Of a stretch of DNA of 64,000 nucleotides, positions 24,798 to 46,614 are shown one piece after another. The DNA comes from a virus: positions 124,001 to 188,000 of the IMG/VR virus record IMGVR_UViG_3300022745_000628. The stretch is one strand, 5' to 3'. The position numbers and the translations under genes are program-made. Positions within the stretch are counted from its first letter, which is position 1, and each line of letters starts with the position of its first letter. The notes under the pieces are model-generated. The model did no database searches. It was not told where the DNA came from and saw only the letters and a list, made by a program, of their open reading frames with translations.

Positions 24798-25238
24798 ATG
24801 CCGTTTGAGCTTGTATTGTTGTACGCACTATATGCCTTAGCCGTTAAGGCAATAGTCCACATCTGGTTATACTCCTCGCTGTTCGAGCCTTTGCAAACAG
24901 CCATGTCAGCGGTATTAGACGCTAGATATGCCGATGCAAAGGAAAGTGCGATTGCAGCTACGCCTAGCGAAGATACTGCGCCGGCTACTGCGTATATCCA
25001 AAATACGGTGACCTGGCCAAATTACATTGCTGGGCGCTTGCACACTTGGATGCTAGAGTTACTCACGTGCCAGCTTTGTTTGTCCGTGCACGTGGCATTC
25101 TGGTATGGCTTGTTAATTATCGTTCCTACCTTAACGTGCTGGTTTAACGGGTCTTGGCTGTTATGGCTGTTCTTGACCCCGACAACCGTATTTTCAATCG
25201 TGACGCTGGTTAATTCACCGAGAATATGGATCACATGA
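24798..25238 (+). CDS. Integral membrane protein
   Basis: 146 aa. An N-terminal span (FELVLLYALYALAVKAIVHIWLY) and two C-terminal spans (around HVAFWYGLLIIVPTL and WLLWLFLTPTTVFSIV) flank a soluble loop of about 60 residues. A CQLC pair begins the second hydrophobic region, an arrangement reminiscent of DUF1360-type membrane proteins. AGGA ribosome binding site upstream. Overlaps the RNase H-like gene by 13 bases. Role unknown. Confidence 0.55.
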   Translation: MPFELVLLYALYALAVKAIVHIWLYSSLFEPLQTAMSAVLDARYADAKESAIAATPSEDTAPATAYIQNTVTWPNYIAGRLHTWMLELLTCQLCLSVHVAFWYGLLIIVPTLTCWFNGSWLLWLFLTPTTVFSIVTLVNSPRIWIT

Positions 25239-25780
25239 AAATTAAAATTCCAAGTGAGGAGCGAATTAGAAATATCGACGTAAATAGCGTGCTGCGCGAG
25301 CTCAACATTGAAAATTGGGATGTGTTGATAATCGGCGATGGTTCTGGAAGTACTTGGCAAAACTACTGCGGTTGGGCAGCGTTAATTATCGATCGAGAAA
25401 CACAAGGAAGGCGCTTAATTGGCGGAAACGCCAATATGGGCAGCATCACTTTTGCGGAAGCAATGCCGTACGTGCAAGCCTTGTCTTGGTTCGATCACAC
25501 CTACGGCTCACGCCGTCTAAAATCCGTGGACAAACTCTCGGTACACATCGTTACCGATTCAACTGCAATCGCTACGATCGGCAGTCAGATCTCAAGTAAA
25601 TCCAAGGATAGTCTGCGAAAACACGCGTACTTAGCTGCTTTTTGTCAACAAATGGCTAAATTCCGTTATGACATTCAATGGCATTGGCTACGCAGGGAAA
25701 TTGCGGATGGAAATCGACTTGTCGATGGTGTTTCTAAAGCGTTGAGGTTGTTTGGAGCAGGCGCGTTGGAATCTCAATGA
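25226..25780 (+). CDS. RNase H-fold protein, probable ribonuclease HI
   Basis: 184 aa. The four acidic residues of the RNase H fold can be placed: D38 in VLIIGDGSGS, E78 in ITFAEAMPYVQAL, D111 in VHIVTDSTAI and D167 in GNRLVDGVSKAL. The WHWLRR segment precedes the last motif, as in RNase HI. The enzyme would remove RNA primers from the lagging strand or RNA:DNA hybrids. It lies directly upstream of the noncoding region at 25781-26705, where transcripts might prime replication. A non-catalytic reverse-transcriptase-like RNase H domain is the alternative, but the acids are all there. Confidence 0.7.
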   Translation: MDHMKIKIPSEERIRNIDVNSVLRELNIENWDVLIIGDGSGSTWQNYCGWAALIIDRETQGRRLIGGNANMGSITFAEAMPYVQALSWFDHTYGSRRLKSVDKLSVHIVTDSTAIATIGSQISSKSKDSLRKHAYLAAFCQQMAKFRYDIQWHWLRREIADGNRLVDGVSKALRLFGAGALESQ

Positions 25781-25789
25781 GATCGATCT

Positions 25790-25900
25790 GAGTGTTTGAT
25801 ATTAAAGTTTGTAAATGTTAAATGTAATGTGAATGTTAGATAATTTAAAATGTTAGATAAATGTAAATGTGTGCGATGATGTAAGTAAACGCGTGGAATG
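25790..25900. repeat. AT-rich tract with direct repeats, possible unwinding element
   Basis: Very AT-rich stretch made of variants of AATGTTA and AATGTA. AATGTTAGATAA occurs exactly at 25832-25843 and 25849-25860. It opens the longest noncoding region of the window and is adjacent to RNase H, so it could be an origin unwinding element; direct evidence is only composition and repetition. Confidence 0.4.
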
Positions 25901-25929
25901 ATAATGCCAAGTTGGCGCGGGTTGTTTTG

Positions 25930-26350
25930 ATTTGGTTTAGGAAAGCCCTTGAGGGTTGAAGACATGATAGCAAGGAATTTGAATTGGCAACGTACTATTT
26001 TTCAAAATTGCCAAAATAGTTTGCTCAACCACAGAAGTAAGACCACTAGGGCTGGTGGAGCCGCCCATAGGCGAGACCACCCGAACCTGACGCTAGGAAG
26101 GTTGTGGTTTTACTTTCTGTGTGTTCTAGCGAACCCACTATGAAATAGGGGGTTTGCTAGTAGACCGTCCAGAGTCCTCGTTTTGCCTTTTAAAATCGAC
26201 GTACGTCCGGGCTAGAGTCCTCGTTTTTGGTCATGTGTCCTCGTTTTTTACGATTTTCGCCAAAAAACGAGGACTCTGGACGGTCTATAGAAGGGTCGCG
26301 AGGACTCTAGCCCGGACGTAGAATCAAAAACGAGGACACATGACCGAGAT
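25930..26350 (+). ncRNA. Candidate structured noncoding RNA
   Basis: Several helices can be drawn on the + strand. A short hairpin has CCC 25946-25948 with GGG 25953-25955 and a TTGA loop. A possible H-type pseudoknot has TTGGCAA 25984-25990 with TTGCCAA 26008-26014 crossed by ACTATT 25994-25999 with AATAGT 26015-26020. A long helix 26030-26046 with 26104-26121 (one G-U, one bulge) encloses two hairpins (26054-26081 and 26084-26103). A hairpin 26126-26160 has an 11-bp stem (one G-T), a mismatch, then CTAT/ATAG capped by GAA. Three complementary segment pairs follow. No protein frame covers this stretch. It does not match tmRNA, RNase P or a group I intron as I know them; a large ornate phage RNA of the GOLLD or ROOL kind, or a new class, is possible. 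Confidence 0.45.
26161..26345. repeat. Three collinear complementary segment pairs (A-B-C-A'-B'-C')
   Basis: A 26161-26184 is the exact reverse complement of A' 26264-26287 (24 nt). B 26202-26223 matches B' 26299-26320 (22 nt). C 26229-26248 matches C' 26326-26345 (20 nt). All three left-hand copies end in GTCCTCG plus T residues; the flanks are pair-specific. Because the order is the same on both sides, the three full pairs cannot all form in one nested fold. A nested alternative uses only the shared core: C with A' (13 bp), B with B' (22 bp) and A with C' (11 bp). Confidence 0.85.
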
Positions 26351-26424
26351 TGACAGTTAATAAACTAATGTTAACGATTTAAAATTAGTATTTGTGATTG
26401 AAGCTACCACGGTAAAATTTACCG
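26350..26424 (+). promoter_or_regulatory. Possible promoter and palindromic operator
   Basis: TTGACA at 26350-26355 is a perfect -35 box, with TAACGA 16 bases further on as a weak -10. Downstream, CGGTAAAATTTACCG (26410-26424) is a perfect 7-bp palindrome around a central A, the size and form of an operator for a dimeric repressor. Confidence 0.35.
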
Positions 26425-26705
26425 ATGCCGCGTTGTCCGACCGTTTTTGTCGCGCACACCCAGGACGTATTTTTGACTTCCAGGCTTCCTTAATTTGACC
26501 TAGGGCGAGTCGAAAATTTTTCAAAAAAAAACTTGCTGCTTAGCCAATATCAGGCTAGTCTGCGGTGGTTTAAGTGCTTTCGCACACTCCGGTTCGCAAA
26601 ATTCGGCAGCGCGCTGGCATCAAAATCCAACGTAAAGCGTATGTACTTAAATTGTGTTATGTAATAACTTTTGTTAGATGCGTTTGTAAGAAAGAAGTGT
26701 GATAT
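26425..26705. other. Remainder of the noncoding region
   Basis: No coding frame. Small hairpins can be drawn: TAGCC/GGCTA around 26540-26556 and GTGC TTTC GCAC around 26574-26585. A run of nine A lies near 26523. This stretch may be the 3' part of the same large RNA or the leader of the gene at 26706. Confidence 0.35.
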
Positions 26706-27089
26706 ATGGGCACGATGCATTACAGTAATCGCACTATGCGCGGTGTGATTCGGGAATCGTTAGAAGATACGCATAGAGGAAGATTACGCGCGGTGCGTTG
26801 CGTAGAGGCTTGTTGGCGTGGAAATAAATTTAGTGGGATCTTGTGGTCTCGCTGGCAGAATCCAAGTTTTCCAGTAGAGAGCCTTATCATGGCTGACAGG
26901 ATTACGTGTAAAGGTAATGCTATCTGGCATTCCACGTACACGGAGCAGGATGGTCCGTACGCGTACAGTTGTCCGCTAAAGTATTTAGAGGCGCCTACTG
27001 TTTACATGAATCCTTCTTGGCGTGACAGTGTTATCGAATACCACGCTAGAAGGGCGGCTAAGCGTAATGGCAGCTTCGCGACCAAATAA
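26706..27089 (+). CDS. Hypothetical basic protein
   Basis: 127 aa, rich in Arg and Trp with a few Cys (RLRAVRCVEACWRGNKF, then KGNAIWHSTYTEQDG). No family recognised. Follows the large noncoding region and overlaps the next gene by 23 bases. An RNA- or DNA-binding role would fit the charge but is not shown. Confidence 0.45.
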   Translation: MGTMHYSNRTMRGVIRESLEDTHRGRLRAVRCVEACWRGNKFSGILWSRWQNPSFPVESLIMADRITCKGNAIWHSTYTEQDGPYAYSCPLKYLEAPTVYMNPSWRDSVIEYHARRAAKRNGSFATK

Positions 27090-28125
27090 ACGGAGGTTCT
27101 GGCGGCGAAAGCCTGCAGCAGCCCCCGCTCCGGAAACGGCTACACCTGCCGCGACACCAGCAGTAGTTCGTAAATTACTGGACGCGTCTGCGCCAGATAA
27201 TATCAAACGGCTTAAGTTTTTACTCAAACGCCGCTTGATTTTAAGATCGTTGTATCCAAAAGCTAGTATGCGCTACATCGTGTTGCGACAACAGCAAGAA
27301 ACGGTCGATACCTGGTTACGCGTCAAGTTGGACGAGTTACAGACGTTCGGGCGTGCCAGCCGATTTGCGCAGCCTTACATATCTACCGGGCTGGTTAATC
27401 GTATGTCCAATTGCTACAAATTGTACGGACATAAAAACGATTCCACCGGGTACAGAGCGTGTGGCAATCTGTTGCTTTGTCCGTATTGTTATGGGCGGGC
27501 TATGACTAATCGGGCACTAGATTGCTTAACTCGAGTGCATGCGCATCGTGGACAATTACACAACGCACGTTTGGTGGTTATGCGTCGCCGAAGTAAGTCG
27601 CTAATTCTGACGGACAATCACAATGTGTTGGCGCGTGACGCGATAGCTGAAAGCGCCAGGTTGTACAAAGAGCTGCAACTATTTAGACGAGGCTTGCATA
27701 AAAACGATACGGCTCGTGGCGTGTTAGGGTGTCTGGGCAAAGTCGCAATGGATCCGGTGTTTTCCAGACAAGCGCCGATTAATCCGGACGAACTGATCGT
27801 GGCGCCGCCAACACTTTACGAGATAAACACGCAGATTCCGGATATGCAGCAGGTTTATTACAACACTGTCGATATTCTCGTTGTGACCAAAGACGCCAAC
27901 CTTAAGTATTACGGGAATACCGGGTTTACAAAGGCTGTCGATAGGCCACTACAAGATGTCACGCAAGTTGAATTTACAATGGAGTTCGCAAAGATTTTTT
28001 GCTATCCTCGGTATTTATTTCACAACACGGCGTTAGCGCAGCACATGGTGTACTCCGCATACAGCCAGCATAAACATCGACATATTCATTTATCAGGTAT
28101 TTTCAAAAATTTGGACAGGAACTGA
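27067..28125 (+). CDS. Zinc-finger protein with faint Rep-like features
   Basis: 352 aa from ATG 27067; the frame also opens at 27022, but the earlier start would deepen the overlap with the previous gene. Very basic, Ala/Pro-rich N-terminus (KRRFWRRKPAAAPAP). Central Cys motif YRACGNLLLCPYCYGRAMTN, like the zinc motif of some replication initiators, and a His cluster (QHKHRHIHLSG) at the extreme C-terminus. A catalytic Tyr motif after the His cluster is missing, so a rolling-circle Rep is not supported. It probably binds nucleic acid. Its place next to a candidate origin is suggestive. Confidence 0.45.
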   Translation: MAASRPNKRRFWRRKPAAAPAPETATPAATPAVVRKLLDASAPDNIKRLKFLLKRRLILRSLYPKASMRYIVLRQQQETVDTWLRVKLDELQTFGRASRFAQPYISTGLVNRMSNCYKLYGHKNDSTGYRACGNLLLCPYCYGRAMTNRALDCLTRVHAHRGQLHNARLVVMRRRSKSLILTDNHNVLARDAIAESARLYKELQLFRRGLHKNDTARGVLGCLGKVAMDPVFSRQAPINPDELIVAPPTLYEINTQIPDMQQVYYNTVDILVVTKDANLKYYGNTGFTKAVDRPLQDVTQVEFTMEFAKIFCYPRYLFHNTALAQHMVYSAYSQHKHRHIHLSGIFKNLDRN

Positions 28126-29311: not shown

Positions 29312-30433
29312 ATGAAGAAAATTGCATATGTAGCCGCAGATTTGCATTTGCGGCCGACGGTTTGGGCTCATCATCCGACAATGCGCGGAGATACATACGA
29401 TAGTTTCAAGCAAGTTATTCAGATCGTGCTGAACGATCCGGATAAGTTACCGCTTGTGCTGTTAGGCGACATATTCGATAAAAGTCGTCCAGATTCGGAA
29501 TCCGTACAGGTTTATTTAAGTGGTGCGGAACAGCTACACGCTGCAAACATACCGCTGTACTATATTCAAGGTAATCACGATTTAGCCGATCCTGCCTGGC
29601 CTGCGTTAGCGTCAAACGCTATTTCTTTGCATAACAATTGTGTAACGATTAATGGCAAACGATTTGTCGGGCTGGACTATCAACGCGCTGATCAACTCGA
29701 GACGGCTGTTCAAAACCTAGACCAGTTCAGGCCGTTTGACTATGTATGTGTGCATCAAGCCTGGCAAGAATTGCAAGGCGTTGGCAGCACACACGGTGCC
29801 GTAACAATGTTTAAGTCTGGTGATACGGTGCTCAGTGGCGATTTACATATTCGCATGACGCGTGCAATTAACAATGTGGTTGCGCATTCTCCCGGTTCTA
29901 CGAGTATGCAGTCGATTACCGAAGCGCGAGATAAGTTCGTAACGCTGCTGTGTGATTCGACGGATCCAGATATCCAATTTAGCAGCGTGCCATTAAAAAC
30001 AAGAGGCTTGCTGCAACAGACAATACTTACGGTTAGCGGGTTAGCCACGACTATTCAGCAAATCAAAGCGTTTGCTAAATCGGCCGGGCCAAATAAACCG
30101 CTGGTACACGTGAAATATTCTCCGAACGTCACGGATGCGTTTTCAAAGCTAACCGGAGAGTGTGGCGAGCTCGCCTACTTGTTTTTAAATCAATTAGCAG
30201 ATATCGACGGCAATAAAATTGTAAACATAGATCCGACATCCGCGGACTTGACTGTAAATTTGCGAACAGCCGTGACACTGCTGGCGCAAAACCATTCTGA
30301 ATTTGAAGCCGTTATAGCAGCTAGTCTGTTAGACGCCACTAACGTAGTCACTACCATTGAAAAATTGAAAGAGGATTTTCATGCACTTGCGAAAGCTGGC
30401 TCTGCAAAACTACTGCAACCACAAAAAACGTGA
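29312..30433 (+). CDS. sbcD: SbcD/Mre11-like exonuclease subunit (T4 gp47-like)
   Basis: 373 aa. Calcineurin-like nuclease motifs in order: DLHL (D10, H12), GDIFD (52-56), GNHD (87-90), CVHQAW near 150 and GDLHIR near 175. These coordinate two metal ions. With the downstream SbcC/Rad50-like ATPase it forms the SbcCD complex that processes double-strand ends and hairpins and, in T4-like phages, feeds recombination-dependent replication and degrades host DNA. GGAG lies upstream of ATG 29312. The 3' end overlaps sbcC by 53 bases, implying coupled translation. Confidence 0.85.
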   Translation: MKKIAYVAADLHLRPTVWAHHPTMRGDTYDSFKQVIQIVLNDPDKLPLVLLGDIFDKSRPDSESVQVYLSGAEQLHAANIPLYYIQGNHDLADPAWPALASNAISLHNNCVTINGKRFVGLDYQRADQLETAVQNLDQFRPFDYVCVHQAWQELQGVGSTHGAVTMFKSGDTVLSGDLHIRMTRAINNVVAHSPGSTSMQSITEARDKFVTLLCDSTDPDIQFSSVPLKTRGLLQQTILTVSGLATTIQQIKAFAKSAGPNKPLVHVKYSPNVTDAFSKLTGECGELAYLFLNQLADIDGNKIVNIDPTSADLTVNLRTAVTLLAQNHSEFEAVIAASLLDATNVVTTIEKLKEDFHALAKAGSAKLLQPQKT

Positions 30434-32501
30434 AATCACGTTTGAACGCGGACTAACCGCGATTACAGGGCGTAACGGGTCTGGTAAGTCCAATGTGATG
30501 GACGGTGTGAGATTGGCGCTTACCGGTAAAAGCGCTAACTATGGTAAAAAGTCCGACAACATATGTTGCCTGGCTGGTAAAAAAGAACAAGCGTACGTCG
30601 AACTAGAATTTGAGCACGCTGGCACGAATGCGGTAGTCCGACGCTGGCTTCGCCCAGCACAGCCAGCAACGTTGCAACTAGCTGACGGGTCTTCGTATGT
30701 CGGAGATAACGAGGTGAGTAGAATTCTCGCCGAGTTCGTAGGCGTCGATGATGCAACTATGAATACTGTAGTTTTAGTGGCTCAGCGAGACTTGTTTGGT
30801 TTTATAGATCAGACACCTGCGGTGCGTGCTAAACATTTTCAAGATCTGTTCAAGACAGAGCAGGCCGAGCGTATTTATACAGCGGTAAATAAATACATCA
30901 ACGGTTTTAAAGTTACAGATTGGCAAAGTCTATTTGATTCAGCGTTCGCGCAGTGCTTAGCGGCGCAGCAAACGGCAGCTGAAATTAAGAGACTGAATCC
31001 GACTGTTGCTGTAGAAGCTAATCCGTTTGGCGAAATGCTAGAACAACAGCGTAACCTGTTACATATAGTTCAGCAGAAAAACAACTTGTCGCGTACGATA
31101 CAGGATAAGTCTGTTAGTTTAGGCGAGCAGACGGCATTGCTGGTTACGTTAACTGAACAGCGTGCGAAGTTGCTAGCCGAGTATCAGGTGTTAAATAAAT
31201 CGGTTACGGATTTAAGTACACAGCGTGACGAAGCGTTACAACTTGTCGCTGTTGCAGAAGCTACTAAAAAAGCAAACGCGCAGTATCTTGCGCAAGAAGC
31301 TAAGGTACAAGCTTGTTTAGCGCTTCTGCAAGATAAAATGCCTGTGGCTATGCTTGAAGAACAGGTGGAAAGTCGAGAAATTGTAATTGGAGTGCGAGAT
31401 AGGGAATTAGCAGATCTTATATCTCGTCACGGCACATTGCAGCAATTTCTGCAGAACAGTGTATGCCCGACATGTGGCACTGTTAAAGACAGTACGCCAG
31501 AGCAGTTGGCTGCGAAGCAACAAGAAGCTGGGCGGTTAGCTACTGAAATAGCTGAGTTGCAGCGCATACATACCGAAGATAAGGCGGTATTAGCCAAGAC
31601 AAAGTTGGAGCGCAACTGGTTAAAAGAATACACCGCTAACTATCAGAATACTCGAGCCGTATTAGAGGGTATGGCGCCTCCGCAGCCGGTGGCGGATACC
31701 GCAGCAGCGGAAGCTGTGGCAAATGCTTATGCTGCTGACAAAGCTAAGTTAGCTGCAGTAGTAGCAGCGGGTACAAGTGTAGGAGCCAGTATTGCCGCTA
31801 CAAACGCCACTATCAAAGGTCTAAATGAGAGCGTTGCAGAAGCACAGGCAGCGACGCAGCAGCTTCCAGAGGTGGCATTTACGGCCACAGAGCTCGAGGC
31901 TAAGATAGCAGAGCTTCGCCAGCAATCGGAACAATGGACAACGTTTCGGGCGAATTACGTATACGCACTTCGCCAAATGGAGCAAAAGCAGGCTGAAGTG
32001 GCCGAGTATCAAAAGAAAATAGCCGATAGCAAACTGGACACTAAATGGCTGGAGAGCCTAACGACCGTTAGCGATATTTTTCATCGAGATGCGGCACCTA
32101 AATACGTCGCATTGCAAAACATGCAAATCGTGGAACGCGAGATTAACAAGTTTTTGGAATTGTTCGACACGGAGTATCGTGTGGCTGCGGACGAAAACCT
32201 ATCCTTCGTCGCTAGATTTTTAGACGGGCGAGAGCAGTTAGTAGAGCGGTTATCAGGCGGGCAAGCTGCCATAGTAGCGCTAGCTTTTCGATTATCGGTA
32301 AACACATTGTTTGCTGGATCGTTGGGCTGTTTATTTTTGGACGAGCCCACGGCGTATCAAGACGAACACCACATCCGAGGGTTTGGACCAGTAATTTCCA
32401 AGTTGAAGGAATATTCTGCCAACAGAGGTTTACAATGTATTATCGTTACGCATGAGAAAGACCTTGCACCGCTGTTTGATCAGACGGTAGATCTTGGATA
32501 G
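30381..32501 (+). CDS. sbcC: SbcC/Rad50-like ATPase subunit (T4 gp46-like)
   Basis: 706 aa from ATG 30381 with GAGG five bases ahead. N-terminal Walker A GRNGSGKS near residue 31, long coiled coils either side of a zinc hook (CPTC near residue 362), ABC signature LSGGQAA near 622 and Walker B CLFLDEPTAYQD near 650, with a distal His in VTHEKD. The order is that of SMC/Rad50 ATPases. Partner of the SbcD-like nuclease immediately upstream. About 700 aa is shorter than cellular SbcC but typical for phage gp46. Confidence 0.88.
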   Translation: MHLRKLALQNYCNHKKREITFERGLTAITGRNGSGKSNVMDGVRLALTGKSANYGKKSDNICCLAGKKEQAYVELEFEHAGTNAVVRRWLRPAQPATLQLADGSSYVGDNEVSRILAEFVGVDDATMNTVVLVAQRDLFGFIDQTPAVRAKHFQDLFKTEQAERIYTAVNKYINGFKVTDWQSLFDSAFAQCLAAQQTAAEIKRLNPTVAVEANPFGEMLEQQRNLLHIVQQKNNLSRTIQDKSVSLGEQTALLVTLTEQRAKLLAEYQVLNKSVTDLSTQRDEALQLVAVAEATKKANAQYLAQEAKVQACLALLQDKMPVAMLEEQVESREIVIGVRDRELADLISRHGTLQQFLQNSVCPTCGTVKDSTPEQLAAKQQEAGRLATEIAELQRIHTEDKAVLAKTKLERNWLKEYTANYQNTRAVLEGMAPPQPVADTAAAEAVANAYAADKAKLAAVVAAGTSVGASIAATNATIKGLNESVAEAQAATQQLPEVAFTATELEAKIAELRQQSEQWTTFRANYVYALRQMEQKQAEVAEYQKKIADSKLDTKWLESLTTVSDIFHRDAAPKYVALQNMQIVEREINKFLELFDTEYRVAADENLSFVARFLDGREQLVERLSGGQAAIVALAFRLSVNTLFAGSLGCLFLDEPTAYQDEHHIRGFGPVISKLKEYSANRGLQCIIVTHEKDLAPLFDQTVDLG

Positions 32502-46507: not shown

Positions 46508-46530
46508 CGTTTAGTAGGTAACAACTAGCG

Positions 46531-46601
46531 GCGCCGTTAGCACCAAGGCGGTGCACCAGCTTTCAATCTGAGTGAGATCGGTTCGATTCCGATACGGCGC
46601 T
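46531..46601 (+). tRNA. tRNA-like element, possibly degenerate tRNA-Glu
   Basis: 71 nt. Acceptor stem GCGCCGT/ACGGCGC is perfect over 7 bp; D arm GCAC/GTGC is 4 bp; T arm ATCGG-TTCGATT-CCGAT is perfect. Spacing fits a tRNA body. The anticodon arm is poor: a strict 5-bp stem fails, but CCAG can pair with CTG(A)G with one bulge and an 8-base loop CTTTCAAT. The loop resembles CTTTCA of tRNA-Glu (anticodon TTC); strict numbering would give TCA. No CCA is encoded. It sits directly ahead of the ribosome binding site of the next gene. Confidence 0.5.
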
Positions 46602-46614
46602 ATGGAGGAGAATT

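What the first reader, a model, noticed from the sequence alone, without database searches (positions are those of the whole stretch)
26161..26345. Three collinear pairs of perfectly complementary segments (A-B-C then A'-B'-C')
A (24 nt), B (22 nt) and C (20 nt) are each exactly complementary to a segment about 100 bases downstream, in the same order, not the mirrored order expected of a hairpin. A shared core (GTCCTCG plus T) also allows a nested fold. The RNA or DNA could therefore switch between two pairing patterns, link copies in trans, or use kissing interactions. Pair-specific flanks argue against chance duplication. This does not resemble a CRISPR, terminator, iteron or retron layout that I know.
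Basis: seen in the sequence. Interest (0 to 1): 0.88.

Follow-up and report, generated by a model that had tools for sequence, protein, structure and literature searches.

The report
Collinear inverted repeats, likely phage origin
A large, uncultured virus of bacteria carries three exactly matching inverted repeat pairs in an unusual A-B-C/A'-B'-C' order, and they sit in what looks like the control region where it starts copying its DNA, so the pattern may be an unusual replication-origin array rather than an RNA switch.

Summary
A/A' (24 nt), B/B' (22 nt) and C/C' (20 nt) are perfect reverse complements in collinear order, and with one shorter core match they are the only perfect inverted repeats of 15 nt or more in this 193.8-kb phage record. 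Pairing is pair-specific: 20-24 nt for true partners, 7-15 nt for others. All 66 pairs are Watson-Crick. The six shared cores (GTCCTCG, three per strand) fall on one face of B-DNA (period about 10.4 bp, simulated p about 0.001), which means nothing for an RNA. The array lies in a 925-nt gap that also holds the genome's most AT-rich 80 bp, made of 17-bp tandem repeats. It precedes a zinc-motif gene and the replication genes. In 12 related contigs the sequence is gone, but the lowest-GC 200 bp lies within 4 kb upstream of the same gene in 10; in the window phage it ranks third (10 of 13, about 0.45 expected). I read it as a lineage-specific site array in a putative replication origin or control region; template switching between inverted cores probably made the flanks pair-specific. 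RNA switching is energetically possible but untested, because no homologue exists for covariation.

The parts
26161..26184 (+). Arm A (24 nt), core GTCCTCG at 26174-26180
26202..26223 (+). Arm B (22 nt), core at 26217-26223
26229..26248 (+). Arm C (20 nt), core at 26237-26243
26264..26287 (-). Arm A' (exact complement of A), core at 26268-26274
26299..26320 (-). Arm B' (exact complement of B), core at 26299-26305; lacks the A run
26326..26345 (-). Arm C' (exact complement of C), core at 26331-26337
25791..25870 (.). AT-rich element (18.8% GC, lowest 80-nt window of the whole genome) made of a 17-bp tandem repeat x3.5; candidate DNA-unwinding element
25781..26705 (.). Noncoding gap (925 nt), the largest in the window when ORFs of at least 120 aa are counted as coding; putative origin/control region
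26024..26160 (+). Strongly foldable stretch (long branched stem plus hairpin), possible RNA leader; 2 G-U among 51 predicted pairs
27022..28125 (+). Zinc-motif protein (C-x15-C-x5-CPxC), clade-wide family; weak Rep_1 resemblance; candidate initiator
29312..32501 (+). SbcD-like and SbcC-like genes, start of the replication/recombination cluster (helicase, DnaB-like, primase, PolA-type polymerase, UvsX-like follow)
25226..25780 (+). RNase H-like gene (named from sequence resemblance, no family hit) left of the gap; conserved neighbour of terL in relatives

Best explanation
The six arms are a lineage-specific site array inside the putative replication origin / control region of a large tailed phage. 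SHOWN: six copies of a GTCCTCG core, three on each strand, phased at the B-DNA helical repeat. They lie about 0.3 kb from the genome's most AT-rich tandem-repeat tract and upstream of a conserved zinc-motif gene and the replication genes. INFERRED: an initiator, perhaps the zinc-motif protein encoded at 27022-28125, binds the cores on one DNA face, helps melt the AT-rich tract and loads the helicase. INFERRED: while the strand is single-stranded, a nascent 3' end ending in an inverted core anneals to a core already copied on the same strand and copies its flank (template switch). In all three pairs the shared core sits at the end from which such copying would start (3' end of A, B, C; 5' end of A', B', C'). 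Three such events, each across about 75-80 nt, give pair-specific flanks in collinear order.
For: Exact pairs and uniqueness in the genome. Core positions 26174, 26217, 26237, 26268, 26299, 26331: R 0.96 at 10.4 bp, R 0.93 at 10.5 and R 0.02 at 11.0; p 0.00125 in 20,000 simulated spacings. All 66 pairs Watson-Crick with the core at the priming end. Lowest-GC 80-nt window of the genome at 25791-25870, with a 17-bp tandem repeat. Replication genes downstream. Zinc-motif family found in 26 of 43 relative records. The lowest-GC 200-nt window lies within 4 kb upstream of that gene in 10 of 13 contigs, about 0.45 expected; with a 2-kb limit, 7 of 13. Rare long inverted repeats sit beside or in that AT-rich stretch in three relatives too: 19 bp in G059, 18 bp in G067, 17 bp in G002. 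Three direct repeats lie there in G064. Template switching at imperfect inverted repeats is established in E. coli and was first described in phage T4 and yeast (PMC7202029), and can create perfect stems in one event (PMC8794818).
Against: No replication, binding or transcription data. Rep_1 similarity of the zinc-motif protein is weak (2 of 21 members, best E 0.1), no HUH motif is visible, and the structure prediction failed (mean pLDDT 38.5). Repeat arrays are not general in the clade (clear copies only in own and G064). In the window phage itself the AT-rich stretch ranks first at 80 nt but only third at 200 nt. GC skew does not change sign here. The 4-kb limit was chosen after seeing the data, and intergenic promoters are also AT-rich. 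Template-switch loops of 75-80 nt are longer than the short loops usually studied. Phasing rests on six positions.
Confidence: 0.42

Rival explanations
1. Structured RNA switch: the + strand is transcribed into a leader or small RNA (about 26020-26345) that first forms A:A' and then rearranges to the nested A:C', B:B', C:A' fold, or forms partial pseudoknots or trans links.
For: MFE -89.0 kcal/mol, z -7.9; -168.5, z -9.65 for 25990-26400. The growing-transcript MFE flips from A:A' to B:B' plus C:A'. Collinear duplexes are each far stronger than mismatched ones (-44.9, -46.4, -33.5). The upstream 26024-26160 stretch also folds well, z about -3.5 on + versus -2.3 on -.
Against: No Rfam match beyond a spurious one. 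No homologue for covariation. No G-U in 66 pairs. B-DNA phasing has no meaning for RNA. The z-scores largely restate the inverted repeats.
Confidence: 0.2
2. Operator array: a regulator dimer binds the phased cores to control the promoter of the replication operon; not an origin.
For: Phased cores in both orientations, large gap before an operon, AT-rich tract could be a promoter/UP-like element.
Against: Only chance-level sigma-70-like sites were found. The genome-wide lowest-GC position upstream of the same gene in most relatives fits an unwinding element at least as well.
Confidence: 0.17
3. Mutational relic: successive template switches among short repeats made the pattern, with no present function of the arms.
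For: Perfect Watson-Crick identity, one-sided extension from the core, no conservation in relatives.
Against: Helical phasing and the special location are then coincidences; three perfect pairs with no decay need recent or recurrent events.
Confidence: 0.14
4. Assembly or amplification artefact of the metagenomic contig.
For: Single record; raw reads were not available here, so no tool result bears on it directly (one search shows only that the record is one virus contig).
Against: Inverted chimeras give one mirror-order repeat, not three collinear ones with intact unique spacers; the flanking gene order matches relatives.
Confidence: 0.04
5. Recombination sites of a DNA invertase (shufflon-like), A/A', B/B' and C/C' each being a pair of crossover sites.
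For: Multiple inverted 20-24-bp repeats sharing a core.
Against: Segments of under 80 bp with no coding content; inverting one pair would destroy the collinear order; an invertase gene was not sought.
Confidence: 0.03

Closest known systems
Iteron-type phage origins (lambda / Stx phage ori with O protein)
   Same: Repeated initiator sites (4 in lambda, 6 in Stx phages), each an inverted repeat with an A-tract, flanked by an AT-rich tract and linked to replication genes (PMC7466680). Here six core copies, A/T runs, an AT-rich tandem tract and a neighbouring candidate initiator.
   Different: Sites here are not individually palindromic; they form long-range inverted pairs with pair-specific flanks in collinear order. 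The initiator is unproven and unrelated in sequence.
Quasipalindrome correction / template-switch mutation
   Same: Perfect one-sided extension of inverted repeats from a short shared seed (PMC7202029, PMC8794818).
   Different: Three interleaved pairs across 75-80 nt; usual cases are single hairpins with short loops.
Rolling-circle replicons with Rep_1 initiators (double-strand origin)
   Same: Zinc-motif protein with a Rep_1-like C-terminal pattern directly downstream of an inverted-repeat region.
   Different: No HUH motif recognised; Pfam score far below cut-off.
ROOL / GOLLD ornate phage RNAs
   Same: Long foldable noncoding region in a large phage.
   Different: No Rfam match, no conservation, not in a tRNA island.

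Membership tests
Iteron-type replication origin | Several copies of a short repeat (initiator sites) | tested here: met
   Six GTCCTCG cores within 164 nt, phased near 10.4 bp
Iteron-type replication origin | Adjacent AT-rich unwinding tract | tested here: met
   Genome-minimum GC 80-nt window with 17-bp tandem repeats, about 0.3 kb away
Iteron-type replication origin | Initiator gene next to the sites | tested here: inconclusive
   Zinc-motif family with weak Rep_1 score only
Iteron-type replication origin | Initiator binding and autonomous replication | not testable with these tools
   Needs footprinting, coverage or plasmid assay
Rolling-circle Rep_1 replicon | HUH endonuclease motifs and catalytic Tyr in the Rep protein | tested here: not met
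   Invariant columns are C131, C147, C153, P154, C156 only; no conserved HxH; Rep_1 below cut-off
Known RNA families (Rfam 15) | Score above gathering threshold | tested here: not met
   No match here; one tRNA elsewhere in the window
CRISPR array | Identical direct repeats separated by unique spacers | tested here: not met
   Only a 7-nt core is shared and half the copies are inverted
Intrinsic terminator | GC-rich hairpin with short loop, then T run | tested here: not met
   Only one terminator-like hit in 25700-26800, at 25905, chance level
Template-switch product | Arms perfectly complementary, extended one-sidedly from a seed | tested here: met
   66/66 Watson-Crick, core at the priming end of all three pairs
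Template-switch product | An ancestral imperfect state in a relative | tested here: inconclusive
   No homologous sequence found
DNA invertase crossover sites (shufflon-like) | Cognate recombinase gene and inverted isomers | not tested
   Neither gene search nor reads examined

The most novel reading that the evidence does not exclude
A new kind of phage origin or leader element in which three interleaved, mutually exclusive perfect pairings are selected, so that DNA melting or transcription steps the strand through an ordered series of hairpins (A, then B, then C) as a timing or counting device.
Probability: 0.1. Interest if true: 0.88.

Novelty: new variant of a known kind. Interest (0 to 1): 0.55.

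Why it matters
Origins of large environmental phages are almost unmapped. The position-conserved, sequence-free AT-rich element in front of a clade-wide zinc-motif gene gives a testable origin prediction for a whole group of phages. The collinear repeat array would be a clean natural case of templated flank copying between inverted sites, or a new pairing switch if selection maintains it.

Tried and rejected
Rfam at gathering and relaxed thresholds: nothing relevant (one spurious microRNA hit). Direct DNA search in phage records, in the first 34 relative records and exact or degenerate patterns in viral contigs: no homologue; the degenerate three-core pattern gave only unrelated hits without crossing repeats. 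TerL scans gave relatives at up to 57% identity, none with the array. GC skew as an origin marker: uninformative. DnaA boxes: not enriched, none in the gap. AlphaFold of the zinc-motif protein: unusable, so no fold search was run and the second fold job was not used. PDB profile search: nothing. An 8-10-mer match (AACGAGGACA) in L134/L151 is not significant given the number of regions searched. A 150-nt sliding fold scan of relatives timed out. A-tract phasing alone is modest (R 0.63).

Full report
OBSERVATION. The three pairs exist exactly as described: A 26161-26184 with A' 26264-26287, B 26202-26223 with B' 26299-26320, and C 26229-26248 with C' 26326-26345, all 100% complementary. The record is a virus contig of 193,796 bases and the window is 124001-188000 of it. 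Reading the rest in pieces, the only perfect inverted repeats of 15 nt or more within 400 nt are these three pairs plus one 15-nt core cross-match. In 1000 Markov shuffles of the gap the longest was 14 nt. True partners match over 20-24 nt, wrong partners over 7-15 nt. So the pair-specific flanks are real. The core common to all six is GTCCTCG; the T/A run is missing at B'.

SETTING. The array lies in a gap of 925 nt (25781-26705), the largest in the window when ORFs of at least 120 aa are counted. Left of it are a terminase large subunit gene (minus strand; phrog_675) and an RNase H-like gene (so named from sequence, no family hit). Right of it are a 127-aa gene, a zinc-motif gene, SbcD-like and SbcC-like genes, helicase, DnaB-like, primase, PolA-type polymerase and UvsX-like genes. 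The most AT-rich 80 nt of the whole genome are 25791-25870 (18.8% GC), built of a 17-bp tandem repeat. Between the AT tract and the array, 26024-26160 folds strongly.

DNA OR RNA. Three facts favour DNA. First, all 66 pairs are Watson-Crick, whereas the predicted upstream stems (51 pairs) contain two G-U pairs. Second, the six core positions (26174, 26217, 26237, 26268, 26299, 26331) are phased at 10.4-10.5 bp (R 0.96 and 0.93) and not at 11 (R 0.02); 0.125% of simulated spacings do as well. Third, the surroundings. On the RNA side, the nested fold (A:C', B:B', C:A') is the MFE at -89.0 kcal/mol, while forcing A:A' gives -73.7 and C:C' -69.9. The MFE of growing transcripts passes from A:A' to B:B' plus C:A'. 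A switch is therefore energetically possible. Full simultaneous collinear pairing in one strand is unlikely, because the 5-nt linkers B-C and B'-C' would have to span helices of 20-22 bp (inference).

RELATIVES. TerL alignments found more than 100 related contigs, the nearest at 52-57% identity. None has the array, and a DNA search of the first 34 relative records found nothing. No comparable crossing pair occurs in about 3 Mb of other loci or in about 1.6 Mb of relatives fetched as large pieces; two trivial crossings between copies of one short repeat were the only hits. The zinc-motif gene, however, belongs to a clade-wide family: profile matches in 26 of 43 records and an alignment of 21 with invariant C131, C147, C153-P-x-C156 and a C-terminal YP..L / R....G..R pattern. 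Two members match Rep_1 weakly (E 0.1); no HUH motif is visible, so it is at most Rep-like. In 13 contigs read whole in pieces (12 relatives and the window phage), the lowest-GC 200-nt window lies within 4 kb upstream of this gene in 10, all of them relatives, against about 0.45 expected. With a 2-kb limit it is 7 of 13. In the window phage and G067 it ranks third, in G061 fifth. Rare long inverted repeats sit beside or in that stretch in G059 (19 bp), G067 (18 bp) and G002 (17 bp). G064 has three direct repeats there. Position is conserved while sequence is not, as expected of an origin or control region evolving with its binding protein.

MECHANISM. My preferred reading has two layers. Function: phased initiator-type sites next to an unwinding tract, like the six-iteron origins of Stx phages and the four of lambda in general plan (PMC7466680). 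History: template switching. In each pair the shared core is at the 3' end of the upstream arm and the 5' end of the downstream arm, exactly where a nascent strand would anneal to the earlier copy and extend by copying its flank. That process is documented at imperfect inverted repeats (PMC7202029) and can create perfect stems in one event (PMC8794818). Near-constant spacing of the pairs (75-79 nt between arms) makes the collinear order natural if the switch works at a preferred distance. Shown: sequence facts, phasing, AT minimum, gene context, position conservation. Inferred: initiator identity, unwinding, template-switch history.

LIMITS. One metagenomic record, no reads, no host, no transcripts, no sister phage. 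The protein model was unusable. The upstream distance limit was chosen after inspection. AT-rich intergenic promoters are a confounder, so an operator array is a serious rival.

VERDICT. The pattern is real and singular in the data at hand. It is best filed as an unusual site array in a putative phage replication-control region, a new variant of a known kind, with a pairing switch not excluded.

Noticed in passing
window 27022-28125 and loci L151-L176: Clade-wide zinc-motif protein family (C-x15-C-x5-CPxC, C-terminal R....G..R) with no PHROG or Pfam assignment; weak Rep_1 and IS91-zinc resemblance.
   Followed up: partly
L168 (about 910-1170, + strand) and L169, upstream of the zinc-motif gene: About 30-bp long-range stem with a perfect 18-nt core enclosing about 212 nt of foldable sequence, in two nearly identical phages; may be another structured noncoding element.
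   Followed up: no
L165 1122, 1163, 1227 (+ strand): Three direct repeats TATGGGTTGAANGTC..CTTANTGTACC, spaced 41 and 64 nt, in the AT-rich stretch upstream of the zinc-motif gene.
   Followed up: partly
L174, reverse strand, about 920-1240: Two copies of a stretch of roughly 75 nt holding a CATATACACACCGAAGACGGTGTATATG hairpin.
   Followed up: no
window 46530-46602 (+): tRNA gene for which ARAGORN reports a four-base anticodon (ttca); Rfam also calls it a tRNA. Possible frameshift-type or degenerate tRNA.
   Followed up: no
window 26024-26160: Strongly foldable branched stem plus hairpin just upstream of arm A, better on the + than the - strand; no Rfam match.
   Followed up: partly
genome 97997-99031 (L009 17997-19031) and 123172-124000 (L011 3172-4000, up to the window start): Other long stretches without ORFs of 60 aa or more in this phage; the calculation was done per piece, so gaps at piece ends may be cut artificially.
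   Followed up: no
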